Assembly: GCA_029907475.1 (NCBI GenBank)
Contig: JARYLU010000001.1
Coordinates: 124,001-188,000 of the forward strand
DNA from: Bacillota bacterium
GTDB lineage: Bacteria; Bacillota; DSM-12270; Thermacetogeniales; Thermacetogeniaceae
DNA length: 64,000 nucleotides
Direction of reading: 5' to 3'
Every line of letters starts with the position of its first letter. The stretch's first letter is position 1. Below are positions 1 to 26,507 of the stretch, piece after piece. Under the pieces are notes generated by a model that saw nothing but the letters and a program-made list of their open reading frames with translations, made no database searches and was not told the DNA's origin. The position numbers were made by a program, and so were the translations under genes.

Positions 1-2
1 AA

Positions 3-617
3 TTAAGGCAGGAAATTTGCTGCTTAATATCGAAACACCGACCCGAGAAAGCAGGGCAGATCGAAAAAATTAATGGATACCTCAGCGATTATCCCCATAT
101 TTATAAGGATTTTCTTCAAAAGGAGCAGGCCTTACCTATCCCGCAAGGAATGTTATCAGAAGAAAACGAACTCCTGAATTTCGTTGTTTACCAGACCATG
201 CGGCCTTTTCTACAAAAATTCGCTTCTCAAACTCATTCTTTCATACAAGCCGACAGGTGGTTGCGGGATTACTGTCCTGTTTGTGGCGAAAAACCTACCT
301 TCTCTTACCTGCGACGGGAGGATGGAAAGCGGGTTCTGGTATGTCCCCTTTGTGCTACTGAGTGGAATTATCGCTACCTTGTTTGTACCTGGTGCGGTAA
401 TCAGGAGCATCAAAGTCTAAAATTTTTTGAAGTAATTGATGTGACAGGTTATGAGGTGTATGTGTGCGAAAAGTGCCGGGGTTATTTAAAGACTTTTAAT
501 GAGAAGAAAGGAACGAATCATGATGATTGGCTCCTGGAGGATATTAAAACTTTAATGCTGGATATGATCGCTTTTCGAGAAGGATTTACGCGTCCCGGGG
601 GGAAAATACTTCAATAG
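3..617 (+). CDS. fdhE: FdhE-like formate dehydrogenase accessory protein (5' end outside window)
   Basis: The reading frame is open to the left edge, so only the C-terminal 204 residues are present; FdhE proteins are usually near 300 residues. Four CxxC-type pairs are visible (CPVCGEKP, CPLCATEW, CTWCGNQE, CEKCRGYL), the rubredoxin-like zinc/iron-binding pattern of FdhE. FdhE helps mature or export formate dehydrogenase by acting on its sulfurated molybdenum/tungsten cofactor site. A formate dehydrogenase may lie just upstream; formate is the first intermediate of the methyl branch of the acetyl-CoA pathway encoded at 11-26 kb. The assignment rests on the cysteine pattern and length; the true start is not visible. 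Confidence 0.8.
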   Translation, partial: LRQEICCLISKHRPEKAGQIEKINGYLSDYPHIYKDFLQKEQALPIPQGMLSEENELLNFVVYQTMRPFLQKFASQTHSFIQADRWLRDYCPVCGEKPTFSYLRREDGKRVLVCPLCATEWNYRYLVCTWCGNQEHQSLKFFEVIDVTGYEVYVCEKCRGYLKTFNEKKGTNHDDWLLEDIKTLMLDMIAFREGFTRPGGKILQ

Positions 618-12397: not shown

Positions 12398-14434
12398 ATG
12401 CCGAGATTCAGTGATACTTCTCTTCAGAATTCTAAGCCATCGGTAGATCGTAAAAACAGAATCAAAGATCCTAAAAACATCAAGCGTACTATCGATCCGG
12501 CTGCCCTGGAAATGCTCGATTTTACCAAGGAAAATAACATTATTACGGCATTTGACCGCTGGTCTGCCCAGCAGCCCCAGTGCGCCTTTGGTTACCAGGG
12601 AATTTGCTGCCGGATCTGTTTCGCAGGCCCCTGCCGGATTAAGGCCGAAGAGGGACCTGGAAGCATGGGTATTTGCGGGGCCAAGGATTACACGATTGTT
12701 GCTCGTAACGCCATCCGGATGATGGCCGGTGGATGCTCCGCCCACTCCGACCACGGCCGGGAAGTTGCGAATGTCCTGCTCCACATGGCCGAGGGGCATG
12801 CACCTGACTACAAGGTAACAGATCCCGATAAACTGCGCGGCGTGGCCCAGCGCTTGGGACTTAGTGTTGACGGGAAGTCGGATCTGGAACTTGCCAAGGA
12901 AGTGGCAGAGGTAGCCTTAGAAGATTTCGGAAAGCAGGATGATACACCGTGCGCCTTCCTGTGGTCTACCATTTGCGATGGTCGTAAAAATAAATATCAA
13001 GAATGCGATGTTATTCCTACCTCAATCGACCGCTCAGTTGTAGAGGTGCTCCACAGGACCCACGTTGGGGTTGACGCCGACCCGGTCAACCTGATTTTCG
13101 GCGGTATCAAGTGCTCCCTGGCAGACTATACAGGGATGCACCTCTCTACCGACCTGTCCGACATTCTTTTTGGAACCCCGAAGCCGGTGATGAGCGAGGC
13201 CAACCTGGGCGTGATTGACCCGGACAAAGTCAACATTATCGTCCACGGCCACAACCCGATCCTGAGCCAGATGGTTGTCGACACGGCAAAGACCATGGAA
13301 GAGGATGCGAAGGCCGCCGGGGCCAAGGGAATCCAGATTTCCGGAATCTGCTGCACGGGAAACGAAGTGTTAATGCGTGCGGGAGTTCCCATCGCCACCA
13401 GCTACATGGCCCAGGAGCTTGCCATCGCAACAGGCGCAATCGATGTGATGGTTGTTGACGTCCAGTGTATCATGCCGGCGGTGCGAAATGTCGCAGAATG
13501 CTTCAACACGAAGATTGTTACAACCCTTCCGATCTCCAAGATCCCCGGTTCTTATCACTTCGCTTTTGATGAAGCACGGGCAGCGGAAAGTGCAAGAAAT
13601 GTTATTAATCTTGCCATTGAGACATTTAAGGTCCGGAAGGAGAGCGGAAGAGCGGTTAAAGTTCCGCAGTTTAAGAACAAGTTAATGGCCGGTTTCAGCC
13701 TCGAAGCGTTGATGGACCTCTTTGCTGCGATTAATCCGGATAACCCGGTTAGCGTCCTTACTGATGCCATTCTTAATGGAGAGATTGCAGGGGTCTGTCT
13801 GCTGGCAGGCTGCAATAACCTGGAAGCGGTTTATGAGAAGAGTCATACAGACATCATTAAGGGATTGGCCCAGAACAATGTCTTCCTGGTCGGGACAGGC
13901 TGCGTGATGCAGGCCGCTGCAAAGCACGGATTGTGTACGTATGAGGCAGTTGAACAATACGCAGGCCCGGGCCTGAAGGCATTCCTCGACCGGCTCTATG
14001 AAGCCAACAAGGATAAGCTCCCCGAGAAGTTGCCGCTGGCCTTCCACATGGGTTCGTGCGTTGACAACACCCGGGCGGCTGACCTGTGGACGGCGATGGC
14101 CAACGAACTGGGAGTCGACGTGCCTAAGGTTCCATTTGTTGCCAGCGCACCTGAAGCCATGAGTGAAAAGGCGGTTTCCATTGGCACCTGGGTGGTGGCG
14201 CACGGAATTCCGACCCACGTCGGTACGATGCCACCGCTGGAAGGGAGCAGCCTGGTCTGGAGCGTTGTCACCTGCATCGCTCACGACGTCTACGGCGGTT
14301 ACTTCATCCTCGAAACCGACCCCGAGGTAGCCGTCGAGAAACTGGTAGCTGCTCTCGAGTACCGTTCCTGGAAACTCGGGATTCACAAGAAGGCTGCGGA
14401 GCAGTACGAGACGGATCTCTGCCAGGCCTTTTAG
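12398..14434 (+). CDS. acsA: Carbon monoxide dehydrogenase catalytic subunit (CODH/ACS alpha-type, CooS/AcsA)
   Basis: Product of 678 residues, as expected for AcsA. The N-terminal cysteine set for the B and D clusters is visible in YQGICCRICFAGPCRI and MGICGAKDYTIVARN; C-cluster region residues occur in ISGICCTGNEVLMRAG, LLAGCNNLEAVYE, GTGCVMQAAAKHG and FHMGSCVDNTRAADL. It reduces CO2 to CO (or oxidises CO) on a nickel-iron-sulfur cluster and passes CO through a tunnel to AcsB. Start ATG with AAAGGGAGG upstream. Codon use is richer in C at third positions than in most neighbours, as in highly expressed genes. Confidence 0.98.
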   Translation: MPRFSDTSLQNSKPSVDRKNRIKDPKNIKRTIDPAALEMLDFTKENNIITAFDRWSAQQPQCAFGYQGICCRICFAGPCRIKAEEGPGSMGICGAKDYTIVARNAIRMMAGGCSAHSDHGREVANVLLHMAEGHAPDYKVTDPDKLRGVAQRLGLSVDGKSDLELAKEVAEVALEDFGKQDDTPCAFLWSTICDGRKNKYQECDVIPTSIDRSVVEVLHRTHVGVDADPVNLIFGGIKCSLADYTGMHLSTDLSDILFGTPKPVMSEANLGVIDPDKVNIIVHGHNPILSQMVVDTAKTMEEDAKAAGAKGIQISGICCTGNEVLMRAGVPIATSYMAQELAIATGAIDVMVVDVQCIMPAVRNVAECFNTKIVTTLPISKIPGSYHFAFDEARAAESARNVINLAIETFKVRKESGRAVKVPQFKNKLMAGFSLEALMDLFAAINPDNPVSVLTDAILNGEIAGVCLLAGCNNLEAVYEKSHTDIIKGLAQNNVFLVGTGCVMQAAAKHGLCTYEAVEQYAGPGLKAFLDRLYEANKDKLPEKLPLAFHMGSCVDNTRAADLWTAMANELGVDVPKVPFVASAPEAMSEKAVSIGTWVVAHGIPTHVGTMPPLEGSSLVWSVVTCIAHDVYGGYFILETDPEVAVEKLVAALEYRSWKLGIHKKAAEQYETDLCQAF

Positions 14435-14462
14435 GACGAATTAGAGGAAAGGGGGAAAAAGC

Positions 14463-16679
14463 ATGTCTACTGCATGGCGCGTAGAAAGAGAAAAATTTGA
14501 AGATATTTACGCGGGTTCTATCGAGCCGGGGAAAGAACCGAAAAAACTGTTCAGGCAGGCTTACGAGGGAACCATCGTTGCGCTTAGCTATGCTGAAATC
14601 TTACTCAATAAAGCGATTAAAGAATTTGGTCCCGATCATCCGGTGGCCTATCCCGAAACCGCTTACTTCGTGCCTGCGATTAGGGCGCTGAGCGGCGAGG
14701 AAATTACGAAGCTCGGCGATATGGTATCCATTTTGAACGCGAAGCGGGACCAGGTTCATCCTGAAATCAGCCTTGAGAACGCGATGCTCTGGGGCGAGTC
14801 GGTAATATATGCAGCGGAAATTATCGAAGCCGTAAGATGGGCCACGGGCCGGAGAGAATTTCTTCCCAAGCCCTGGACCGGGTTTATTCCGGATACCTAC
14901 GTCCGAAAGTGGGGGATTAAGCACGTTGACTGGACAATTCCGGGCGAGGTCGTGATTTGCGGCCGCTTCCGGACCTCAGACGATGCGTTCAGGATTGTCA
15001 ACAAACTTGTCCAGAAAGGCTTTATGCTCTTCCTGGTTGATGAAGTGATCGAGCAGTTGTTGGAAAAGGGGTACAAGTTTGATATTGACGCCTGGCCGGT
15101 TTATCCGCTGGGGAACTTCACACAGGTAATCCACGCCGTCAACTACGCCTTCCGCGCTTCGTTGATGTTCCCGGGTATCCCGCCAGGAGACAAGTTTATG
15201 CACCGGAACTACCAGCGTGACCGGATTTTAGTTTACTGCTTGCTTCCTGGTGAACGGGACATTGTTAAGGTTGCTGCCTCTTTTGCGGCAATTTACATGG
15301 GCTTCCCGGTGATCGTGGACCAGCCTCTCGAGGAGGACGAGATCTGGAAAGACTGGTACTTCTCGGTGCCTGATTACGACGAAGCAATCCAGATCGGGAT
15401 CGAGGTCCGCGGCATCAAAATTACGGCAATTGAAATTGATATTCCGATTACCCACGGTCCCGCCTTCGAGGGTGAGAGTATCCGCCGTGCCGATATGTTT
15501 GTCGAGTTCGGTGGTGGCTACTCCGCAGCATTTGAGTTGGTGAAAATGGCAGATGCCGATCATGTAACAGACGGCAAGATCGAAGTCATCGGACCGGATG
15601 TTGATCAAATGGAAGAAGGAAAGGCTTACCCGCTGGGCATCTATATCGAAGTTTACGGGCGTAAGTTCCAGGAGGACTTCGAACCGGTATTAGAGCGCCG
15701 GATTCACTACTTCATGAACTACGGTGAAGGTGTCTGGCATATGGGACAGCGAGATCAGAACTGGATGCGGATCAGCAAAGGGGCACACGAAAAAGGCTTT
15801 ACATTGCAGGATTTAGGCAAACTGTTCTACGGCTACTTTAAGAAGGAATATGCTGCAATTGTAGACAGGCTTCAAATTACGCTTATTACCGACCAGGCCG
15901 AGGTTGAAAAGCGCATTGGCGAAGCCCGTGAGAAGTTCCAGGCCCGTGATGACCGCCTGAAGAACCTGCGGGACGACGCGGTAGATGTCTTCTATACCTG
16001 TACCCTCTGTCAGTCCTTCGCTCCAACGCACATTTGCTTCGTCTCCGCTGAGCGGACCGGTCTCTGCGGTGCGGTGAGCTGGCTGGATGCTAAGGCCACT
16101 TACGAGATTGACCCGACCGGTGTCTGCCAGCCTGTCTCGATTACGCAGGAATACGTCATTGACCCGGTTAAGGGTGAGTGGTCTACAATTAACGAAACCG
16201 CTGCTGCCCGGACCCAGGGCAAGACAACTTCGGTCTGTATGTATACCATGATGGACCGCCCGATGACCACGTGCGGTTGCTGTGAGTGTATCCTGGCCCT
16301 TGTCCCTGAATGCAACGGGATGATGGTTACAACCCGTGAGCACAAGGGAATGACTCCTGTGGGGATGACCTTCTCCACCCTTGCCGGAATGGTCGGCGGT
16401 GGCAACCAAACACCGGGCTTTGCCGGGGTTGGAAGGCTTTACCTGATAAGCCGGAAGTTCCTCCCTGCCGACGGCGGGGTTGGAAGACTTATTTGGATGC
16501 CCAAAGAATTGAAAGAACAACTGCGCGAACAACTTAATGAACGCGGCAAGGAAGAAGGTTTCGGGGATAATTTTGCCGACATGATTGCTGACGAAACTGT
16601 AGGAGTTACACCCGATGAGATTATGCCCTACCTGCAGGAAAAAGGCCACCCCGCACTTTCGATGGATCCCTTAATGTAA
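14463..16679 (+). CDS. acsB: Acetyl-CoA synthase, CODH/ACS beta subunit
   Basis: Product of 738 residues. The A-cluster cysteines are in YTCTLCQSFAPTHICF, ERTGLCGAVSW and TCGCCECILALVPECNG; the downstream GMTPVGMTFSTLAGMVGGG and TPGFAGVGRLYL are typical of this subunit. It joins CO, the methyl group from the corrinoid protein and CoA to give acetyl-CoA. It follows acsA by 28 bases with AAAGGGGGAAAAAGC as ribosome site. The bacterial-type N-terminal domain that contacts the CODH subunit is present. Confidence 0.98.
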   Translation: MSTAWRVEREKFEDIYAGSIEPGKEPKKLFRQAYEGTIVALSYAEILLNKAIKEFGPDHPVAYPETAYFVPAIRALSGEEITKLGDMVSILNAKRDQVHPEISLENAMLWGESVIYAAEIIEAVRWATGRREFLPKPWTGFIPDTYVRKWGIKHVDWTIPGEVVICGRFRTSDDAFRIVNKLVQKGFMLFLVDEVIEQLLEKGYKFDIDAWPVYPLGNFTQVIHAVNYAFRASLMFPGIPPGDKFMHRNYQRDRILVYCLLPGERDIVKVAASFAAIYMGFPVIVDQPLEEDEIWKDWYFSVPDYDEAIQIGIEVRGIKITAIEIDIPITHGPAFEGESIRRADMFVEFGGGYSAAFELVKMADADHVTDGKIEVIGPDVDQMEEGKAYPLGIYIEVYGRKFQEDFEPVLERRIHYFMNYGEGVWHMGQRDQNWMRISKGAHEKGFTLQDLGKLFYGYFKKEYAAIVDRLQITLITDQAEVEKRIGEAREKFQARDDRLKNLRDDAVDVFYTCTLCQSFAPTHICFVSAERTGLCGAVSWLDAKATYEIDPTGVCQPVSITQEYVIDPVKGEWSTINETAAARTQGKTTSVCMYTMMDRPMTTCGCCECILALVPECNGMMVTTREHKGMTPVGMTFSTLAGMVGGGNQTPGFAGVGRLYLISRKFLPADGGVGRLIWMPKELKEQLREQLNERGKEEGFGDNFADMIADETVGVTPDEIMPYLQEKGHPALSMDPLM

Positions 16680-16702
16680 CAAGACGAGAACCCGGTCCCA
16701 AG

Positions 16703-16735
16703 GGCCACCGGTCGAATCTGAGCCGACCGGTGGCC
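16703..16735 (+). other. Strong intercistronic hairpin between acsB and acsC
   Basis: GGCCACCGGTCG (16703-16714) is perfectly complementary to CGACCGGTGGCC (16724-16735) with a nine-base loop. No T-run follows, so it is more like an mRNA-stabilising or partial attenuation element than a complete terminator. Confidence 0.7.
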
Positions 16736-16790
16736 TCTTCGGGTCGGGGTTGAAAAAACCATAAAATGGAAAAAGAAAGGAGAAGTGACA

Positions 16791-18131
16791 ATGGGTTTAA
16801 CAGGACTTGAAATTTTCAAGCAGCTACCTAAGACGAACTGCGGAGAGTGTGGCGTACCCACGTGTCTTGCTTTTGCAATGGCCTTAGCATCAGGTAAAGC
16901 CACCTTGAGCCAGTGTCCCTATGTCTCCGATGCCGCGCGTGAAGCATTAGAGTCGGCAACTGCTCCACCGATTAAGCTCGTTAAAGTAGGAGCGGGGGAC
17001 AATGTCTTAGAAATTGGTGACGAGCAGGTAATTTTCCGTCATGACAAGACTTTCTATCATCCGACTGGTATTTTTATTGAGGTTGCCGATACGTTAAGTG
17101 CGGACGAGTTGGCAGCGAAGGTAGATGAAGTTAACGGCCTGGTAGTTGAGCGCGTTGGAGAACAATACGTAATTGATGGTTTTGCGATTAAGAATGCTTC
17201 CGGTAATGCCGATGCCTTCAAAAAGGCAGTTGAAGCTGTTGCAAGTAAAACAAACAAGGTTCTTGCCCTTCTTTCCGAGGACGCTGCAGCTATGGAAGCC
17301 GCGGCAGGTGCAGTATCAGACCGGAAACCCTTGCTTTATGCGGCCACTGCCGATAACTACGAAAAAATGGTCGAGGTAGCCAAGAAAGTAGGGGCTCCGC
17401 TGGCTGTTCGGGGCAATGACCTGAATAGTCTCGCGGAATTAGTCGATAAAGTAGTGGCACTTGGCTACAAGGAGCTCGTATTAGACTCCGGTGAACGTCA
17501 AACCTCGAAGGTGTTAGCTGATTTAACTCAAATCCGGCGCCTTTCCATCAAGAAGCGTTTCCGGACCTTTGGATATCCCACAATTGCCTTTACTACTGAG
17601 GAAGATCCGGGCATGGAAGCTCTCGAGGCCCAGGTTTTTGTTTCGAAATTTGCCAGCATCGTTGTCATGAAGAATGTTTCCGAGGAAGCTTTACTTTCGC
17701 TGTTAACCTGGCGGAGAAACATCTATACCGACCCGCAGAAACCCATTGCGGTGCAGCCGGGAGTTTATGCAATTGGTGACGCTACACCTGATTCGCCGGT
17801 ATACATTACGACCAACTTCTCATTGACGTACTACACAGTTGCGACAGAAGTCGAATCCACGAGGTTGCCAAGCTACCTTATTGCATTTGATACCGATGGC
17901 TTGTCTGTGTTGACAGCCTGGGCGGGCGGTAAGTTTGTTGGTGAAACAATTGGCGAGTGGCTGAAAACTTCGGAGCTTAACGAGAAGGTCAACCAGAAGA
18001 AGATCATTATTCCGGGTGGTGTCGCTGCAATTAAAGGAAAGATTGAGGAGCTTTCCGGTTGGGAAGTTATTGTAGGGCCGCGTGATGCTTCCGGAATCAG
18101 TTCTTTTGCAAAACTCCGCTTGGGTGCCTAG
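16791..18131 (+). CDS. acsC: Corrinoid iron-sulfur protein large subunit (CODH/ACS gamma)
   Basis: Product of 446 residues. The N-terminal [4Fe-4S] motif KTNCGECGVPTCLAFA...LSQCPYVSD is intact, followed by a TIM-barrel region and a C-terminal cobalamin-binding domain ending in GPRDASGISSF. With AcsD it carries the methyl group on cobalt between the methyltransferase AcsE and acetyl-CoA synthase. ATG 16791 is preferred over the GTG six bases upstream because AAAGGAG is then eight bases away. Confidence 0.97.
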   Translation: MGLTGLEIFKQLPKTNCGECGVPTCLAFAMALASGKATLSQCPYVSDAAREALESATAPPIKLVKVGAGDNVLEIGDEQVIFRHDKTFYHPTGIFIEVADTLSADELAAKVDEVNGLVVERVGEQYVIDGFAIKNASGNADAFKKAVEAVASKTNKVLALLSEDAAAMEAAAGAVSDRKPLLYAATADNYEKMVEVAKKVGAPLAVRGNDLNSLAELVDKVVALGYKELVLDSGERQTSKVLADLTQIRRLSIKKRFRTFGYPTIAFTTEEDPGMEALEAQVFVSKFASIVVMKNVSEEALLSLLTWRRNIYTDPQKPIAVQPGVYAIGDATPDSPVYITTNFSLTYYTVATEVESTRLPSYLIAFDTDGLSVLTAWAGGKFVGETIGEWLKTSELNEKVNQKKIIIPGGVAAIKGKIEELSGWEVIVGPRDASGISSFAKLRLGA

Positions 18132-18205
18132 TCTCAACTGAGGCCCCCAGGAATCTCCGTTGCCTGAACAAGACGTAGCCAAGGAAACAGAAAGGTGGGG
18201 CTAAC

Positions 18206-18949
18206 ATGGCGAAACACATTGCACTTGCGGGTAAGGGAGGAACGGGCAAGACCACAATCGCATCCCTCGTTGTAAGGTACTTAATTGAAAACAAAAAGGG
18301 TGCAGTTCTGGCTGTAGATGCCGATCCCAACTCCAATTTAAACGAGGCATTAGGCGTTGAAGTGAAAAATTCGATCTCCAACATTCTGGTTGATATCAAG
18401 AAAAGTAACGTTCCTACCGGTATGACGAAAGACGTATACCTCGAATTGAAGTTACATCAAGCTTTAACTGAAACAAAATACTTTGACCTGCTGGTAATGG
18501 GAGGACCTCAGGGGCCCGGGTGTTATTGCTATCCGACGGAGTTGCTGAAACGACATATTGACGTTTTAGATAAAAACTATGCATACATGGTGATTGACAA
18601 CGAAGCGGGAATGGAGCACATCAGTCGGGAAACCATCGAAAATATAGATATTATGCTGGTAATTTCCGATGCCACAGCAAAAGGTGTTCGCACGGCAGGC
18701 AGGATCTATGAACTTGCAAAATCCTTAAAGATTCAAATTAGCGATGCATACCTTATTGTTACGAAAATCGAAGATTCAAGTTCGCTTCAAAGGGAAATTG
18801 AACAGACAGGACTTAAGTTCTTGGGAGCGGTTCCCTTTGATCCTCTTGTTGCTGAATATGATCTCAAAGGGAAGCCTATCATGGAACTGCCGGAAGATAG
18901 TCCTGCAGTTCGTGCAACCCGGGAAATGTTTGAAAAACTATCACTTTAG
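18206..18949 (+). CDS. acsF: AcsF/CooC-like ATPase (second nickel-maturation ATPase)
   Basis: Product of 247 residues, a second CooC-family ATPase in the same cluster. P-loop ALAGKGGTGKTTIAS, then LAVDADPNSNLNEALG; a CxC motif is in GPGCYCYPTELL, and VIDNEAGMEHISRETI replaces the more common aspartate-rich Walker B. Homologues at this place in acs clusters are called AcsF and are linked to nickel insertion into the A-cluster of acetyl-CoA synthase; whether it serves AcsB or AcsA here is inference. ATG start with GAAAGGTGGGG upstream; acsD follows after 17 bases. Confidence 0.9.
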   Translation: MAKHIALAGKGGTGKTTIASLVVRYLIENKKGAVLAVDADPNSNLNEALGVEVKNSISNILVDIKKSNVPTGMTKDVYLELKLHQALTETKYFDLLVMGGPQGPGCYCYPTELLKRHIDVLDKNYAYMVIDNEAGMEHISRETIENIDIMLVISDATAKGVRTAGRIYELAKSLKIQISDAYLIVTKIEDSSSLQREIEQTGLKFLGAVPFDPLVAEYDLKGKPIMELPEDSPAVRATREMFEKLSL

Positions 18950-18966
18950 ACAAGAAAGGAGAGTAA

Positions 18967-19944
18967 ATGATGCCGGTTGAGATTTTAAAAGAAAAATTTA
19001 CTGGTAAAGTTCAGGAAGTAGTGCTCGGCGCAACAAAAGAAGAGGGCGGTACCAGGGCTTATACGGTGAAATTGGGCGGAAGCTCGACCCTGCCTTTCCT
19101 TCAGTTCGAAGGCGATATTCCTAACCGTCCTGTAATTGCGCTTGAGGTTTGGGATATCAAGCCAGATTGGCCTGAGTGTTTTGTGCCTTACTACGGCGAT
19201 GTCTGGGAAGACCCGGTTGCCTGGGCGAAAAAGGCTGAGGAATACGGGGCCGACGTTATTTATCTCCGCCTTCAGGGCGCAGATCCGGAATTGGAAAATT
19301 CAAGGACCGCAGATGACTGCGCAAAAATTGTAAAGGCGGTTTTAGAGAATACGGGTGCCCCCCTGATGGTAGAAGGTCCCGGATTCCCGGATAAGGATAA
19401 TGAAGTCCTGCAGGCGGTGGCGGAAACGGCTGCAGGGGAAAACATCGCTCTTGGTGTTGCCGAAAAGGATAACTACAGGTCAATCGCTGCTGCCTGCATG
19501 ATGGGCAAGCACTGTATCGTGGGGCGTTCACCGGTTGATATCAACATTTTAAAACAGTTAAACATTATGATTACAGAAATGGGTGTTTCACCTGAAAAGA
19601 TCATCAATGACCCCTTAACAGGCGGTTTGGGATATGGGATTGAATACTCCTACTCGATTATGGAACGGGCACGCTGGGGGGCCCTGATTGGGGATAAAAT
19701 GATGGCATTCCCGGTTGTTTGTTTAGCTGGCCCCGAGGCATGGCGGCCGAAAGAGCCCAATGCTCCTAATGAAGAGGCCGGTCGCGGTTGGGGCGACCAA
19801 AAGGTGCGGGGAATCATGTGGGAGGCTATGACGGCTGCTGCTTTGCTGCAAGCCGGTGGAGACCTTGTACTTATGCGGCACCCAGAAGCAGTAAAATTAG
19901 TGAAGAAACAGCTTGAAGATCTCATGGTCCCGAACACCTACTAA
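18967..19944 (+). CDS. acsD: Corrinoid iron-sulfur protein small subunit (CODH/ACS delta)
   Basis: Product of 325 residues. Recognised by the opening VEILKEKFTGKVQEV, LEVWDIKPDWPE, DVIYLRLQGADPE, and the late segments NDPLTGGLGYGIEYSYSIMER and GWGDQKVRGIMWEA, all typical of CdhD/AcsD. It forms the TIM-barrel partner of AcsC in the corrinoid iron-sulfur protein. Two adjacent ATG codons (18967 and 18970) follow GGAGAG; either can be the start. Confidence 0.97.
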   Translation: MMPVEILKEKFTGKVQEVVLGATKEEGGTRAYTVKLGGSSTLPFLQFEGDIPNRPVIALEVWDIKPDWPECFVPYYGDVWEDPVAWAKKAEEYGADVIYLRLQGADPELENSRTADDCAKIVKAVLENTGAPLMVEGPGFPDKDNEVLQAVAETAAGENIALGVAEKDNYRSIAAACMMGKHCIVGRSPVDINILKQLNIMITEMGVSPEKIINDPLTGGLGYGIEYSYSIMERARWGALIGDKMMAFPVVCLAGPEAWRPKEPNAPNEEAGRGWGDQKVRGIMWEAMTAAALLQAGGDLVLMRHPEAVKLVKKQLEDLMVPNTY

Positions 19945-19992
19945 TGAGGAAAGAGTGGAAAGGCTTAAAATTTTGCTTTAATAAAATTTTAA

Positions 19993-20799
<807 letters not shown>

Positions 20800-20827: not shown

Positions 20828-20870
20828 GTAAGGTCCCGCTTCAACTTGCGACGGTAAGGCGGGACCTTAC
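20828..20870 (+). other. Intercistronic hairpin after acsE
   Basis: GTAAGGTCCCGC (20828-20839) pairs perfectly with GCGGGACCTTAC (20859-20870) across a 19-base loop; a run of six T follows ten bases later (20880-20885). It could be an attenuator that lowers expression of the hdrA/met genes relative to acs genes. Confidence 0.55.
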
Positions 20871-20947: not shown

Positions 20948-22936
20948 ATGAGTAAAAAAAGTAAACACATTCGCGTCGGAATCTACCTTTGTGATTGCGA
21001 TGGAAGAATTTCCGAAAAAATTGACCTGAATAAAGTCAAAACTGTAATCCAAAGTGAAGCTGATTTCGAATATATCAGGGTCACTAATGTTCTTTGCGGG
21101 AAGGTGGAACAGGAAAGACTTGCTCAAGAAATAGATAAGTATTCATTAAATCGTCTTTTAATTGCGGGTTGTACGGATCCTTTTATTACGCGGCAATTTT
21201 TACAAGTAGCGGAAGAGAACGGTCTCATCCGTTACTATGTTGATTTTGTTGACCTCTCTGCGGTTGGCGAAGGAAAACATGATGCTACGGAGGCTGCGAT
21301 TTTGGCGATAAATAATGTGCTTGCAAACATGCAACTCCGGGGTGATATTGGGCTGGAAGAACTTCAGGTTCTCCCTGAGGTTCTGGTTGTTGGGTGCGGA
21401 AACGATGGAGCAACTGCTGCGTTAGCAATTGCTCAAAACCAGCCGGTCGTCATGATTGACCAAGAATTTGAAACCAGCGGGGTTGCACTTGTTAGTGGGA
21501 ACCCAAAAATTACTGTAAAAACAGGAGCCAAACTAGTTGGACTGGAAGGCTTCCCCGGCAACTTTACCGTACGGATTTTGGAAAACGGGAAAATTTCGAA
21601 GCAAAATTTTGGAGCAATTGTACTTGCATTAGATGCCCAGCCTGTCTTTGACAAAAACAAGTACGGCGGGGTTGCGCCAGGTGAGAAGATTCTTTTGTTG
21701 TCCCAGTTTACTAATGCAAAGAAGGATTACTTGGGCCAAAAAATTACTTTCATTTTAGGGAAAGCAGATCTTGATTCTCTCCTTTCGTACGCAGCTGTTT
21801 TAAAAGAAGCTATTAGTCTTAAAGAAAAAGGTGCAGCAGACGTTACTGTCTTTTACGATGACATGAAGGTATCAGCGGATTACCTTGAACAGTACTACGA
21901 AAAAGCCCGCGCCGTAGGGGTTAATTTCTTAAAATACGGCGGTGATTTAGAAATTTATACGACAGTTGTCGCTGCAACGGTACAGTATCGCGAACCTTTC
22001 CTGCCACAGGGTTTTCCGGTAAAAGTAACTTCTGATTATCTGGTACTCGCGGAAGATTACGTTCCTGCTCCGGTCACCCAGGAATTGGCTGAGACGTTAG
22101 AGGTCAGGTTGGGTCCTGGAGGATTCTTCCAGGATGACAATGTTCACTTCCTTCCAATTAAGTCAAACCGTGAGGGGATTTATTTCGTAGGAAGCTGCCA
22201 CGGTCCCATTCATGGAATTGACCTTGCAAGGGAAGTAGAGGCTGTCGCCGCTGAAGTAAGCCGTTTCGCTCATGGTACCTTAAAGGTACCCGCCTTGCAA
22301 CCTCGCGTGGAAGCAGAAAAATGCGCGGTTTGTCTTACTTGCTACCGCACTTGTCCTCATAAAGCCATCGAAATCGTTCACGACGAAAGTTTGAACAATA
22401 TGTATTATTCAGCGGCGAGAATGCACCCCCTCGCATGCCGTCGCTGTGGTACATGTGCGGCAGAATGCCCGGGCAAGGCTATTCAGTTGCCTTTTTATTC
22501 AGACCAGGAAATCTTACTTGAAGTCACAAAGCCCCCTAAACTAATAGCTTATGCATGCGAGAATTCGGGAGCGTTAGCCGCTGAGTTTGCTCAACAATTG
22601 GAATCTCAGGTACAAAACGATTTACAGATTGTTCGTGTACCCTGTTCAGGTAAGATTGATGTAATTTACATACTTAAAGCCCTGGAACGGGGTGCTGATG
22701 GTGTGATCCTACTGGTCTGTCACCGGGATAACTGCAAGTATGTATGGGGTAACGAAAGGGCAGAAAAACGTAAAGAACAAGTCCGGAAGTTGCTGAATGA
22801 TATCGGGCTTGAAGGAGATCGGGTTGAAATTGTGCATGTCGCTGCTAATCAGGGAAACCAGTTTAACACTGCAGTGAAGGCGATGGCGGAGAAGGTTCGC
22901 CAATTTGGAACAAACCCGGGGAAGGTGGTAAAGTAA
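20948..22936 (+). CDS. HdrA-like iron-sulfur protein fused to an MvhD-type domain
   Basis: Product of 662 residues. Domain order: HdrA N-terminal region (IRVGIYLCDCDGRISEKID, VLCGKVEQ); a Rossmann-like region at about 150-440 in which the usual FAD motif GGGxxG reads VVGCGNDGATAALA and lacks the normal glycines; two [4Fe-4S] motifs CAVCLTCYRTCP and CRRCGTCAAECP; and a C-terminal MvhD/FlpD domain with RVPCSGKIDV and LLVCHRDNCKYVWGN. Such proteins pass electrons between hydrogenase- or NADH-linked partners and heterodisulfide-reductase-like units. Gene order with metV and metF points to electron supply for methylene-THF reductase. ATG 20948 has AGGGGGA seven bases upstream. It abuts metV with no gap. 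Confidence 0.88.
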   Translation: MSKKSKHIRVGIYLCDCDGRISEKIDLNKVKTVIQSEADFEYIRVTNVLCGKVEQERLAQEIDKYSLNRLLIAGCTDPFITRQFLQVAEENGLIRYYVDFVDLSAVGEGKHDATEAAILAINNVLANMQLRGDIGLEELQVLPEVLVVGCGNDGATAALAIAQNQPVVMIDQEFETSGVALVSGNPKITVKTGAKLVGLEGFPGNFTVRILENGKISKQNFGAIVLALDAQPVFDKNKYGGVAPGEKILLLSQFTNAKKDYLGQKITFILGKADLDSLLSYAAVLKEAISLKEKGAADVTVFYDDMKVSADYLEQYYEKARAVGVNFLKYGGDLEIYTTVVAATVQYREPFLPQGFPVKVTSDYLVLAEDYVPAPVTQELAETLEVRLGPGGFFQDDNVHFLPIKSNREGIYFVGSCHGPIHGIDLAREVEAVAAEVSRFAHGTLKVPALQPRVEAEKCAVCLTCYRTCPHKAIEIVHDESLNNMYYSAARMHPLACRRCGTCAAECPGKAIQLPFYSDQEILLEVTKPPKLIAYACENSGALAAEFAQQLESQVQNDLQIVRVPCSGKIDVIYILKALERGADGVILLVCHRDNCKYVWGNERAEKRKEQVRKLLNDIGLEGDRVEIVHVAANQGNQFNTAVKAMAEKVRQFGTNPGKVVK

Positions 22937-23608
22937 ATGATCGTTGCTGAAAGAAAACCAGTTGAGAAGATTCTTGAGATGATCGCGCCCTATAAGAAGG
23001 TTTTAGTGGCAGGGTGCCTGGGGTGCGTAACGGTGTGCCTGACGGGCGGCGAAAAAGAGGTTGGCATTCTGGCTTCTCAGATCCGGATGGCACGCAGCAA
23101 AGAAGGCAACCCGATCGAGGTAATCGAACAGACTGTGGAACGCCAGTGCGATGCCGAATACAATGCCAAATTCCTGGAAAATGTTGAAAAAGTCGAAGCC
23201 ATTGTCTCTCTAGCCTGTGGCATTGGTATTCAGTACCTGGGCGAGAAGTATCCCTCGACCCCGATCTTCCCCGGTGTCAATACCCTGATGCTGGGCGCCA
23301 ACATCGATGTCGGCAAGTGGGAGGAGCGGTGCTTCGCCTGCGGCGACTGCGTCCTTGATAAGACAGGCGGTATTTGCCCCATCGCCCGTTGCTCCAAGAG
23401 TCTGTTGAACGGACCCTGCGGCGGTTCCCAGTACGGGAAGTGCGAGGTCTCCAAGGATGTACCCTGTGCCTGGCAACTGATCTATGACCGGTTGACAGCT
23501 ATCGGCCAGGTGGACAAGTTGAGGGAAATCATCCCGGCGAAGAACTGGCTGCGCGCCAAGGGCCCGAGAACTTATGTAAGGGAGGATCTGACCCTTGACA
23601 GAAGCTAA
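22937..23608 (+). CDS. metV: MetV, zinc/iron-sulfur partner subunit of methylenetetrahydrofolate reductase
   Basis: Product of 223 residues. It matches the MTHFR C-terminal (MetV) family: LVAGCLGCVTVCLTGG near residue 30, LACGIGIQYLGEKYP, and the cysteine-rich segments CFACGDCVLDKTGGICP and LLNGPCGGSQYGKCE. In Moorella-type acetogens MetV forms a core complex with MetF. The ATG follows the hdrA-like stop directly, with GGGAAGGTGG as ribosome site, and the end overlaps metF by 14 bases, so the two are translationally coupled. Base composition rises sharply here compared with the preceding gene. Confidence 0.93.
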   Translation: MIVAERKPVEKILEMIAPYKKVLVAGCLGCVTVCLTGGEKEVGILASQIRMARSKEGNPIEVIEQTVERQCDAEYNAKFLENVEKVEAIVSLACGIGIQYLGEKYPSTPIFPGVNTLMLGANIDVGKWEERCFACGDCVLDKTGGICPIARCSKSLLNGPCGGSQYGKCEVSKDVPCAWQLIYDRLTAIGQVDKLREIIPAKNWLRAKGPRTYVREDLTLDRS

Positions 23609-24638
23609 CAGCAAACCCGAAGGCAACTTGAAATCAGGCAGCGCATTAGAAAGAACCTATGCATCAGGCCAATTTGTCGTCACCGGCGAGATCGGCCCAC
23701 CCAAGGAATCGAGCTTCCATCACATCGAGATGTACGGTCAGGGGATGATGGGGCGGGTCGACGCCGTCAACTTCACCGACAACCAGACCGCCGTCACCCG
23801 GCTCTCCAGTTGGGCGGCATCCATCAAGCTAATTCAGATGGGCATGGAGCCGAACCTGCAGGTTGTGTGCAGGGACCGCAACCGCCTGGCCATCCAGAGC
23901 GACCTGCTGGGCGCCTATGCACTCGGGGTACGCAACGTGCTCTGCCTGTCCGGCGACCACCAGATGTTTGGCAACCACCCCGGCTGCAAGGGCGTCTACG
24001 ACGTTGACTCCATCCAGTTGATCGGGATAGTGAAGAGGCTTCGGGATGAGGGGCGTTTCGAGTGCGGCGAGGAGTGCAAGCACAACCCCAGGTTCTTCAT
24101 CGGCTGCGCCGCGAACCCCTTCGGCGATCCCTTCGAGTTCCGGGTGGTGCGCCTGGAGAAGAAGATCGAGGCCGGCGCCGATTTTGTACAGACCCAGTGC
24201 ATCCTGGACATGGAACGCTTCGAGCGGTTCATGGAGCTGGTCCGGGCGCGCGGCCTGCACAAGCGAATCTATATCAGCCCCGGGCTGATGCCGGTCAAGT
24301 CCCCGAAGATGGCCCGATACATGCAGACGGGCGTGCCCGGGATGATGGTATCGGAAGAGTTCTGCCAATTCTTAGAGAAGGCGGAAAATGGGAAGATCGC
24401 GGCCCTGGATCTGACGGTGAATTATCTCAAGCATGTCCAAAAGATCGAGGGAGTGGCGGGTGCGCACATCATGGCCGTGGCGTGGGAGGAAGTGGTGCCC
24501 TTGATCTTGGCGAAAGCTGGCGTCCTTCCCAGGCCCTTCGCGGCTTTCAAGGACACCCCCGGGGCTATCACCGATGAACTCAAGGCTTTATGGAAAAAGT
24601 CAGGCGTTGAGAATTATGCTCCGGAGCTGCTGACATAG
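23595..24638 (+). CDS. metF: 5,10-Methylenetetrahydrofolate reductase
   Basis: Product of 347 residues, with a TIM-barrel FAD-binding pattern: VTGEIGPPKESS near the N-terminus, VDAVNFTDNQTA, NVLCLSGDH, GCAANPFGDP, KIEAGADFVQTQ and YISPGLMPVKS. It reduces methylene-THF to methyl-THF, the methyl donor for AcsE. TTG start at 23595 preceded by GGGAGG. This gene and metV are clearly richer in G+C than both flanking hdr-like genes: for example 41 of 60 bases at 23881-23940 against 25 of 60 at 21481-21540. That may reflect strong expression bias or a foreign origin of the metVF pair. Confidence 0.95.
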   Translation: MTEANSKPEGNLKSGSALERTYASGQFVVTGEIGPPKESSFHHIEMYGQGMMGRVDAVNFTDNQTAVTRLSSWAASIKLIQMGMEPNLQVVCRDRNRLAIQSDLLGAYALGVRNVLCLSGDHQMFGNHPGCKGVYDVDSIQLIGIVKRLRDEGRFECGEECKHNPRFFIGCAANPFGDPFEFRVVRLEKKIEAGADFVQTQCILDMERFERFMELVRARGLHKRIYISPGLMPVKSPKMARYMQTGVPGMMVSEEFCQFLEKAENGKIAALDLTVNYLKHVQKIEGVAGAHIMAVAWEEVVPLILAKAGVLPRPFAAFKDTPGAITDELKALWKKSGVENYAPELLT

Positions 24639-24668
24639 CAGAAGTGACCTGAATTGGAGGGGTATAAT

Positions 24669-25709
24669 TTGGAAAGAGAAAAAGTACTTGTAATTGGTGG
24701 CGGCACTGCGGGAATGACGAGTGCCCTTGAGTTAGCCGAGCGAGGGGTAGAAGTTTTTCTAATCGAAAAAGAAAAAGAAATTGGCGGAAAAGCAGCGGAT
24801 TACTGCTGTAAAGCTACTGAAAAGTGCAACCGTTGTGCCGCTTGTTTGGTCCTGCAGCAGAAAGATAAAGTTTCACAGGAACCTCTGGTTCATGTCCTGA
24901 CCAGCGCCCGGGTGACGGAGGTAAAAAGAAACGGAAAGGGCTTTAAAGCTGCAGTTACCCGGGGGGAAGACGTTCTTGCGCTAGAGGCACAGGCTGTTAT
25001 TGTAGCAACTGGTTTTGATCCCTATGATTTAAAGAGAAGAAGTGAGTTTGCTTATGGGCTGGAGGGCAATGTTATCTCAGGGTTGGAACTGGAGAAAGCT
25101 TTAAAAGAAAAGGGAAGTTTTGCTGCAGCCTTCGGTTCCGGAATCAAAAAAATCGGGTTTATTCAATGTGTGGGAAGCCGGGATCTCTCGATAGGTAATG
25201 GCTACTGTTCGAGGGTTTGCTGTATGTATGCGGCCAAACTTGCTAAAATAATTCGGAATGAATTGCCTGAAGTCGAGATTGATATTTTCTATATGGACTT
25301 TCAGAGCTTTGGGAAAGGCTTCAGTATTTTTAATCAAGAGCTTAGAGAAACTGATAAAGTTAGATTCATCAGAGCCATTCCTTCAAAGATTTACGGTTTT
25401 CCCTATGACCGCCTGACGGTCCGTTATACCGATTCTATGGTTGGGAAGCCCTGCGAAGATAAGTACGATTTAATCGTGCTCTCTCTTGCCATCACTCCCT
25501 CTGAAAGCAGCCAGCAACTTGCACAGCAACTGGGACTCAACCTGGATAATTACGGATTTATGGCAGGATGCTCAGATGAAGAAACAGTTGTTACAAATCA
25601 ACCAGGTGTTTTCCTGGCGGGTGTCTGTCAGGGACCCAAAGATATTCCCCAGACAATCGGACACGCCAGGGCCGCGGCGGGAATGGTATTCCAGTATCTT
25701 GGCAGCTAA
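24669..25709 (+). CDS. HdrA-like FAD-dependent iron-sulfur oxidoreductase
   Basis: Product of 346 residues. The FAD motif VIGGGTAGMTSALELAERG is canonical and is followed by EKEIGGKAADYCC and a cysteine cluster ATEKCNRCAACLV at the place where HdrA has its TNDCSMC-type cluster. Later segments IQCVGSRD, GYCSRVCCMYAAKLA and FLAGVCQGPKDIPQTIGHA are also HdrA signatures. It lacks the N-terminal domain and ferredoxin modules of full HdrA, which are present instead in the fusion protein at 20948. The two may therefore form one split HdrA. TTG 24669 is the preferred start, with GGAGGGG six bases before it. A terminator follows. Confidence 0.88.
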   Translation: MEREKVLVIGGGTAGMTSALELAERGVEVFLIEKEKEIGGKAADYCCKATEKCNRCAACLVLQQKDKVSQEPLVHVLTSARVTEVKRNGKGFKAAVTRGEDVLALEAQAVIVATGFDPYDLKRRSEFAYGLEGNVISGLELEKALKEKGSFAAAFGSGIKKIGFIQCVGSRDLSIGNGYCSRVCCMYAAKLAKIIRNELPEVEIDIFYMDFQSFGKGFSIFNQELRETDKVRFIRAIPSKIYGFPYDRLTVRYTDSMVGKPCEDKYDLIVLSLAITPSESSQQLAQQLGLNLDNYGFMAGCSDEETVVTNQPGVFLAGVCQGPKDIPQTIGHARAAAGMVFQYLGS

Positions 25710-25850: not shown

Positions 25851-26507
25851 ATGCGCAGGCAGGTGAAAGAAATGCCTCTCTCCGAGGAAAAAGTAATTGG
25901 AGAACAAATTTTAACGAAAATCGATCAGCTTATCGAATTAATCATTGCGGCAGGTATGCAGAACAAAAAGGACCGCCAGGAACTATTTAAGCAAGGGTGT
26001 CTCATGATGCGTGAACTCCTAAGCTTGCTGGAGCAGCTTCTCGGCCCCCGGGAAGACTATTTACGTACAGCAGTAAAAGAGTTAGTTATGCAGAGGCTTC
26101 CGGATCAAAGAGTACTTAACGGGTTTGCTGACTTTTACGATCTTCTGGAAGAAATATACCGAAAGGCGCGTCCAATAAAGTATTCCCCTCCGGATTATCA
26201 GGAAAAGACTATCCGTTTACCTGAAATAGGTTCCGGGAACAGCTTAGAGCAGGCCTTAATATTTCTCTTCCCGCGCGATAAAATTCAAAAAAATTATTGG
26301 TATAAAGGAATGAATTTCCAATACTTTCTTCCTTCCTTGAAATTTGCGGTTGAAGACATTGCTTGGAATAAAGCTTTCAATCGCGCCCGGAAAGAATTTT
26401 TTTGTCGCAAGCATGGTATTCGGTTTCTTGTTTTAGATTCCACAAAAGCGGCCAATTACCGTGAGGTTGCCCGCATTATAAAAAGGCAGGTTTCCATTCC
26501 GGATTAA
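25851..26507 (+). CDS. Hypothetical protein with a possible degenerate endonuclease-fold C-terminus
   Basis: Product of 218 residues from ATG 25851; an ATG at 25872 with AGGTGA upstream is as likely. The first 110 residues look helical (LTKIDQLIELIIAAG, MMRELLSLLEQLLG). The last 70 residues resemble the layout of PD-(D/E)XK proteins of the DUF559/Vsr kind: YFLPSLKFAVED, then RARKEFFCRKHGIRFLVLD and a closing helix. The first catalytic aspartate of that fold is not visible, so activity is doubtful. No clear family is recognised. It stands alone between a terminator and the T-box unit. Confidence 0.65.
   Translation: MRRQVKEMPLSEEKVIGEQILTKIDQLIELIIAAGMQNKKDRQELFKQGCLMMRELLSLLEQLLGPREDYLRTAVKELVMQRLPDQRVLNGFADFYDLLEEIYRKARPIKYSPPDYQEKTIRLPEIGSGNSLEQALIFLFPRDKIQKNYWYKGMNFQYFLPSLKFAVEDIAWNKAFNRARKEFFCRKHGIRFLVLDSTKAANYREVARIIKRQVSIPD

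What the first reader, a model, noticed from the sequence alone, without database searches (positions are those of the whole stretch)
20948..25709. Methylene-THF reductase module with HdrA-MvhD fusion and split HdrA but no HdrB/HdrC
Seen: gene order HdrA-like/MvhD fusion, metV, metF, then a second HdrA-like flavoprotein, with tight spacing. Known: in Moorella-type clusters metFV are linked with hdrABC and mvhD; other acetogens use RnfC2 or MetF alone. Inference: this is a different electron-input arrangement for the most debated step of acetogenic energy metabolism, in which no HdrB/HdrC is available locally and electrons enter via the MvhD domain or an unlinked partner. It could be a complex specific to syntrophic acetate oxidation running in reverse.
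Basis: partly seen in the sequence, partly recalled or inferred. Interest (0 to 1): 0.75.

Follow-up and report, generated by a model that had tools for sequence, protein, structure and literature searches.

The report
Split HdrA module on methylene-THF reductase
These four genes encode the enzyme that interconverts methyl- and methylene-tetrahydrofolate in an acetate-using bacterium, together with its electron-transfer subunits; the gene order is already published for close relatives, and the "missing" HdrB/HdrC genes lie 31 kb upstream among menaquinone and formate dehydrogenase genes, which points to the membrane quinone pool as the electron partner.

Summary
In detail: acsE, then HdrA-like/MvhD fusion (P1, 20948-22936), metV, metF and a short HdrA-like flavoprotein (P4, probable start 24669). 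The arrangement is not new. Keller 2019 (PMC6895022) reported it in Thermacetogenium phaeum, with hdrBC elsewhere beside menaquinone and formate dehydrogenase genes; PMC11201294 reports the same for Syntrophaceticus schinkii. Here hdrCB lie 31 kb upstream on the same contig and strand, between menaquinone genes and a Tat-type selenocysteine formate dehydrogenase. My additions: (1) in trees P1 groups with the second HdrA module, and P4 (less firmly) with the first, of the tandem HdrA of Moorella-type MTHFR clusters; they are not QmoB/QmoA. So this is a split type-IV MTHFR. (2) P4 keeps the flavin, Cys4 and E356/K409 bifurcation signatures; P1 has lost them. (3) In 19 genomes of seven families, split modules go with an hdrCB pair in or beside a menaquinone locus; 0 of 7 genomes with local hdrCB show this; four divergent split genomes are exceptions. 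The likeliest role is reversible electron transfer between methyl-THF/methylene-THF and menaquinone via unlinked HdrBC (inferred). Specificity to acetate oxidation is not supported. A covarying hairpin precedes P1.

The parts
20828..20870 (+). Perfect 12-bp hairpin GTAAGGTCCCGC...GCGGGACCTTAC between acsE and P1, single copy in the genome
   Evidence: covariation, 9 of 14 pairs with two-sided changes in 12 sequences; no Rfam match
20948..22936 (+). P1: HdrA-like/MvhD fusion (counterpart of the second HdrA module of tandem HdrA, plus MvhD)
20972..21349 (+). P1 N-terminal HdrA domain with four conserved Cys (16, 18, 51, 76)
21374..22276 (+). P1 degenerate TrxR domain: GxGxxG kept; GG loop (about 23-30 residues), E356 and Cys4 cluster ligands lost, K409 not conserved
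22307..22489 (+). P1 ferredoxin domain, two [4Fe-4S] motifs
22538..22924 (+). P1 C-terminal MvhD/FlpD domain with four Cys
22937..23608 (+). metV, Fe-S/zinc-type subunit of methylene-THF reductase
   Evidence: PF12225
23595..24638 (+). metF, methylene-THF reductase (TTG start behind AAGGGAGG)
   Evidence: PF02219
24669..25709 (+). P4: stand-alone HdrA flavoprotein core (counterpart of the first HdrA module), no inserted ferredoxin or GltD domain; extra motif C52-x5-C58-x2-C61-x2-C64
25770..25791 (+). Terminator-like hairpin after P4, followed by TTCTTTTTTT
   Evidence: such sites are no commoner here than in shuffles; weak evidence alone
12398..20799 (+). Upstream CODH/ACS genes acsA, acsB, acsC, cooC, acsD, acsE (context)
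1..617 (+). FdhE end of the periplasmic formate dehydrogenase locus that, with hdrCB and menaquinone genes, lies just upstream of the window

Best explanation
It is the methylene-THF reductase (MetVF) with the electron-transfer module of a type-IV (Hdr-type) MTHFR, in which the tandem HdrA known from Moorella and Sporomusa is divided over two genes. P4 carries the one intact flavin centre, with the E356/K409 residues of bifurcating HdrA. P1 carries the second HdrA half reduced to an Fe-S relay, fused to MvhD. I infer that MetVF exchanges electrons with P4/P1, which pass them on to the unlinked HdrC-HdrB pair and from there to menaquinone, reversibly. During acetate oxidation methyl-THF (-200 mV) would reduce menaquinone, and the periplasmic formate dehydrogenase would use menaquinol with the proton gradient. 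Shown: gene content, descent, motif retention and loss, and the location of hdrCB. Inferred: complex formation, direction, the quinone link and flavin loss from P1.
For: Tree of HdrA cores: P1 with the second module of tandem HdrA (99/96), P4 with the first (83/93, lesser support), Qmo separate. Intermediates occur: a fused P4-P1 ORF before metVF (L062, L072) and P1 + separate MvhD + metVF + P4 in other families. P4 keeps GxGxxG, Cys4, E356 and K409; P1 has lost E356, the Cys4 ligands and the FAD GG loop, and does not conserve K409. HdrB with both CX31-39CCX35-36CXXC-like motifs and HdrC with two [4Fe-4S] motifs sit with prenyl-, UbiD- and UbiX-like genes, tatC and a Tat/Sec formate dehydrogenase. 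A close HdrB was found in 19 of 20 family genomes, and hdrCB in or beside a menaquinone locus in 19 genomes of seven families with split modules against 0 of 7 with local hdrCB (Fisher p 1.6e-4 including four exceptions, not corrected for kinship). Published: MTHFR activity with BV/AQDS in washed T. phaeum membranes, with hdrBC expressed constitutively (PMC6895022); in S. ovata MetVF interacts with HdrA/HdrB and MvhD is mostly at the membrane (PMC9430772).
Against: No transmembrane segment in P1, P4, MetVF, HdrB or HdrC, so the quinone-reactive partner is unknown. Four genomes with divergent split modules (G035, G100, G352, G391) have no MK-linked hdrCB, and G034, G251 and G202 have no HdrB match at all. 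MK-linked HdrBs are not one clade. In S. [quoted passage not shown] In T. phaeum NADH activity was seen in one fraction.
Confidence: 0.6

Rival explanations
1. The four proteins work as a bifurcating or confurcating MTHFR without HdrBC: P4's flavin splits electrons between MetVF, a low-potential carrier and a partner bound to the MvhD domain.
For: P4 keeps E356 and K409, which PMC9430772 and PMC12054007 give as the bifurcation signature; some split-like modules occur in genomes without MK-linked hdrCB or without any HdrB match.
Against: P4 and P1 lack the inserted ferredoxin domain and the GltD (NADH) insert, so no obvious ferredoxin or NADH site; no bifurcation was seen in T. phaeum extracts (PMC6895022); methyl-THF to menaquinone is downhill and needs none.
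Confidence: 0.2
2. The MvhD domain takes or gives electrons to a soluble hydrogenase or formate dehydrogenase, and the quinone pool is not involved.
For: MvhD is the hydrogenase/FDH adaptor in methanogen Hdr complexes (general knowledge); T. phaeum has soluble hydrogenases and FDHs (PMC6895022).
Against: No such gene lies in the cluster; hdrCB lie with menaquinone genes in seven families; MTHFR activity is found in T. phaeum membranes.
Confidence: 0.12
3. P1/P4 are QmoB/QmoA, i.e. an APS-reductase-type quinone module recruited to MTHFR.
For: Same domain plan: QmoA is a short HdrA, QmoB is HdrA-MvhD, and Gram-positive qmoAB are often followed by hdrCB.
Against: QmoA+QmoB form their own clade (100/99), P1+QmoB as one clade is rejected (AU p 0.009), and there is no aprA in this genome.
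Confidence: 0.03
4. P1's MvhD-HdrA part is a remnant, and MetVF works alone with ferredoxin as in type-II MTHFR; P1/P4 are only co-transcribed.
For: MetVF alone is active with viologens and ferredoxin in several acetogens (PMC8760232); P1's flavin site is degenerate.
Against: P1's Fe-S and MvhD Cys are invariant across the family and the order is conserved, so it is under selection.
Confidence: 0.05

Closest known systems
Thermacetogenium phaeum acs-MTHFR cluster (Tph_c15080-15190; hdrBC Tph_c15470-15480)
   Same: Same gene order (acsE, 'F420-hydrogenase delta', metV, metF, hdrA, hypothetical protein) and the same remote hdrBC by menaquinone/FDH genes; proteins about 71-77% identical (PMC6895022). 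G070 is taken to be T. phaeum from its single 2,939,057-base contig (length recalled, not checked).
   Different: Another species. The published annotation does not say that the 'delta subunit' gene is an HdrA-MvhD fusion or that the two genes are halves of a tandem HdrA.
Syntrophaceticus schinkii MTHFR-hdrA with hdrBC about 30 genes upstream (PMC11201294)
   Same: Same layout, with heme and quinone genes between; L020 (strain Sp3) P1 70% identical.
   Different: S. schinkii MAG18 has a second hdrABC-mvhD cluster beside a formate dehydrogenase.
Moorella / Sporomusa type-IV MTHFR (hdrCBA-mvhD-metVF)
   Same: Same parts list; P1 and P4 group with the two modules of tandem HdrA from clusters of this plan.
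   Different: HdrA is one protein (1487 aa with GltD insert in Moorella, 942 aa in Sporomusa, PMC9430772), hdrCB are local and MvhD is separate.
QmoAB-HdrBC of Gram-positive sulfate reducers
   Same: Domain plan and HdrBC partner.
   Different: Separate clade, linked to aprA; P1 lacks the flavin and Cys4 signatures that QmoB keeps.

Membership tests
Type-IV (Hdr-type) MTHFR | metV and metF adjacent | tested here: met
   PF12225 and PF02219 in adjoining genes
Type-IV (Hdr-type) MTHFR | HdrA with two TrxR modules plus MvhD in the same cluster | tested here: met
   Present as P4 + P1, related by tree to modules 1 and 2, but split and with MvhD fused
Type-IV (Hdr-type) MTHFR | hdrC and hdrB in the same operon | tested here: not met
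   hdrCB lie 31 kb upstream; hence 'split variant', not a plain member
Type-IV (Hdr-type) MTHFR | Physical complex of MetVF with Hdr/MvhD | not testable with these tools
   Needs biochemistry
T. phaeum-type MTHFR cluster (Keller 2019) | acsE - HdrA/MvhD - metV - metF - hdrA order with hdrBC by menaquinone/FDH genes | tested here: met
Bifurcating HdrA | E356 and K409 near the flavin | tested here: met
   Met in P4; not met in P1, where E356 is lost and K409 is not conserved
Qmo complex | QmoA/QmoB descent and linkage to aprAB | tested here: not met
RnfC2-type (type III) MTHFR | rnfC2 gene next to metVF | tested here: not met
   No such gene in the cluster

The most novel reading that the evidence does not exclude
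Several Bacillota lineages share a distinct MTHFR class in which a tandem HdrA is split, its second flavin site is eroded and its HdrBC partner has moved into the menaquinone biosynthesis locus, so that MTHFR is hard-wired to the quinone pool as a one-flavin, non-NADH, non-ferredoxin respiratory module that works in both directions.
Probability: 0.35. Interest if true: 0.65.

Novelty: new member of a known kind. Interest (0 to 1): 0.4.

Why it matters
How acetogens and syntrophic acetate oxidisers couple the methyl-THF step to energy conservation is an open question. The repeated pairing of split HdrA-MetVF modules with hdrCB in menaquinone loci, across seven families, is independent genomic support for the quinone model proposed for T. 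phaeum. It also names the proteins to test (P4, P1, HdrB, HdrC) and the one flavin to look at.

Tried and rejected
Qmo hypothesis (P1/P4 as QmoB/QmoA): attractive by domain plan, rejected by tree and AU test. Common origin of MK-linked HdrB: not recovered, deep branches weak. AlphaFold model of P1 from eight close relatives: mean pLDDT 63, usable only to say that its best fold matches are HdrA structures; cofactor occupancy cannot be read from it. NapH-like Fer4_5 membrane proteins as quinone docking partner: none in the five family genomes searched. Plasmid origin: no match. Rfam: no match.
Full report
Check of the observation. The window holds a CODH/ACS cluster (acsA 12398 to acsE 20799) followed by P1 (HdrA-like/MvhD fusion), metV, metF and P4 (HdrA-like flavoprotein), all on the + strand and tightly spaced. 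Start codons with ribosome sites put P1 at 20948 and P4 most likely at TTG 24669. A terminator-like hairpin follows P4 (25770-25791); such sites are no commoner in this region than in shuffles, so this is weak evidence. No hdrB or hdrC lies in the cluster.

Surroundings in the genome. A search for the HdrB domain found hdrB in the same contig. Fetching that stretch showed hdrC-hdrB at C1:112542-113987, then polyprenyl synthase-like genes, UbiX-like, tatC, a formate dehydrogenase interrupted by an in-frame TGA (context QARI-TGA-HSP, with a Tat-type RRxFLK start), an Fe-S subunit and a cytochrome b561-type subunit. FdhE follows at the left end of the window (window 1-617). The pair is 31 kb upstream of P1, on the same strand. 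HdrB has both five-cysteine motifs and HdrC has two [4Fe-4S] motifs; none of P1, P4, MetV, MetF, HdrB or HdrC has a clear transmembrane segment. A second hdr locus (hdrC1B1A hdrC2B2, sHdr-like) lies on contig C24. The genome has no aprA.

Already described. Keller et al. 2019 (PMC6895022) describe the same order in Thermacetogenium phaeum, with hdrB and hdrC in a separate cluster next to a periplasmic formate dehydrogenase and quinone genes, MTHFR activity with artificial acceptors in soluble and membrane fractions, and a model in which HdrABC links MTHFR to menaquinone. PMC11201294 reports the same layout for Syntrophaceticus schinkii, with hdrBC about 30 genes upstream. PMC10689502 uses a similar model for another acetate oxidiser. 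The finding's arrangement is therefore known for this family; T. phaeum (G070, identified only by its 2,939,057-base contig) and relatives carry P1 at 62-87% identity.

What the two HdrA-like proteins are. In some 55 metV neighbourhoods from other genomes of the phylum and further loci, one type has acsE-hdrC-hdrB-HdrA(about 1490 aa)-MvhD-metV-metF; this HdrA has two TrxR modules and an insert which PMC9430772 names GltD in Moorella. P1 aligns over its full HdrA part (N-terminal domain, TrxR, ferredoxin) with the second module, and P4 best with the first. In a careful tree P1 groups with second modules (99/96) and P4 with first modules (83/93), while QmoA and QmoB from AprA-bearing genomes form their own clade (100/99); one clade of P1 with QmoB is rejected (AU p 0.009). 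Other arrangements exist: a P4-P1 fusion before metVF (L062, L072), and P1 plus separate MvhD plus metVF plus P4 (L061, L071, L089, L146-L152, L157). P1+P4+MvhD is thus a split type-IV module.

Cofactor signatures. By alignment to Methanothermococcus HdrA, P4 keeps the dinucleotide motif, the four clustered Cys, E356 and K409; K409 is Arg in one family member and in several relatives. P1 of this family lacks E356 and the Cys ligands, does not conserve K409, and lacks a stretch of about 23-30 residues containing the GG loop, though it keeps a GCGxxG motif. Loss of flavin from P1 is likely but not shown. P1 keeps four Cys in the N-terminal domain, eight ferredoxin Cys and four MvhD Cys, invariant in the family. 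P4 relatives share an extra motif C-x5-C-x2-C-x2-C absent from sHdrA. Neither protein has the inserted ferredoxin domain or GltD, so no ferredoxin or NADH site is evident.

HdrBC partner. A close HdrB (75-100% identical) occurs in 19 of 20 genomes of the family, and the loci examined are in menaquinone-type neighbourhoods. In six further families with split modules (f5, f12, f54, f75, f107, f124) an hdrCB pair also lies in or beside a locus with MqnA/D, UbiX, prenyl synthase or tatC genes; for f124 only a prenyl synthase adjoins, and in f107 no P4 was seen next to metF. Both loci were seen in 19 genomes. In seven genomes with local hdrCB, all strong HdrB matches are the local copy or HdrABC clusters of other types (one second local copy in G261 was judged by position). 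Two families (f75, f107) hold both module types. Exceptions: four genomes with divergent split modules (G035, G100, G352, G391) lack MK-linked hdrCB, and G034, G251 and G202, which have a P4-P1-metVF plus tandem HdrA arrangement, give no HdrB match. Fisher p is 1.6e-4, but genomes are not independent, and neighbourhoods were chosen by best hits. MK-linked HdrBs are not one clade, which fits either repeated recruitment or an unresolved tree.

Mechanism. Most likely MetVF exchanges electrons with P4/P1, and HdrCB hand them to or take them from menaquinone; methyl-THF (-200 mV) to menaquinone is downhill, and formate or hydrogen formation from menaquinol would be paid for by the proton gradient at the periplasmic dehydrogenase, as proposed by Keller et al. 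The reverse, acetogenic direction would need extra driving force, for which P4's bifurcation-type flavin is a candidate. Complex formation, direction and the quinone contact are inferences.

Side result. Between acsE and P1 lies a perfect hairpin (20828-20870) whose arms are found exactly once per genome in 10 of 20 family genomes, at this junction wherever P1 was placed next to it. T. phaeum and G143 have changed bases with pairing kept; in 12 sequences 9 of 14 pairs show two-sided changes, 0 of 500 shuffles as high. Loop length varies and no U-run follows directly, so an RNA processing, stability or attenuation element is likelier than a plain terminator or a fixed-spacing operator. Other families have different perfect hairpins at the same junction.

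Verdict. Observation confirmed; arrangement already known for the family; interpretation partly supported; the added value is the split-tandem-HdrA assignment and the cross-family link of split modules with menaquinone-locus hdrCB.

Noticed in passing
window 20828-20870: Single-copy hairpin between acsE and the HdrA-MvhD gene with strong compensatory covariation across the family; no Rfam family. Possibly sets the expression ratio of acs to met genes.
   Followed up: partly
window 25851-26507: 218-aa protein without Pfam or NCBIfam match, conserved downstream of the MTHFR module in both split and Moorella-type clusters (orf218).
   Followed up: no
L011 5312-9340 (contig C24 of the same genome): hdrC1-hdrB1-hdrA-hdrC2-hdrB2 cluster resembling the sulfur-oxidation sHdr plan, next to CoA-transferase genes.
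   Followed up: no
L010 3308-6352: Formate dehydrogenase large subunit split by an in-frame TGA in a QARI-U-HSP context, probably selenocysteine, with a Tat-type start.
   Followed up: partly
P4 Cys 52-64, window 24807-24845: Extra conserved Cys motif C-x5-C-x2-C-x2-C specific to the P4 clade, possibly a further Fe-S site near the flavin.
   Followed up: partly
L047, L092, L095: Genomes with a P4-P1-metVF module followed by HdrC, tandem HdrA and MvhD genes, and no HdrB match in the whole genome.
   Followed up: no
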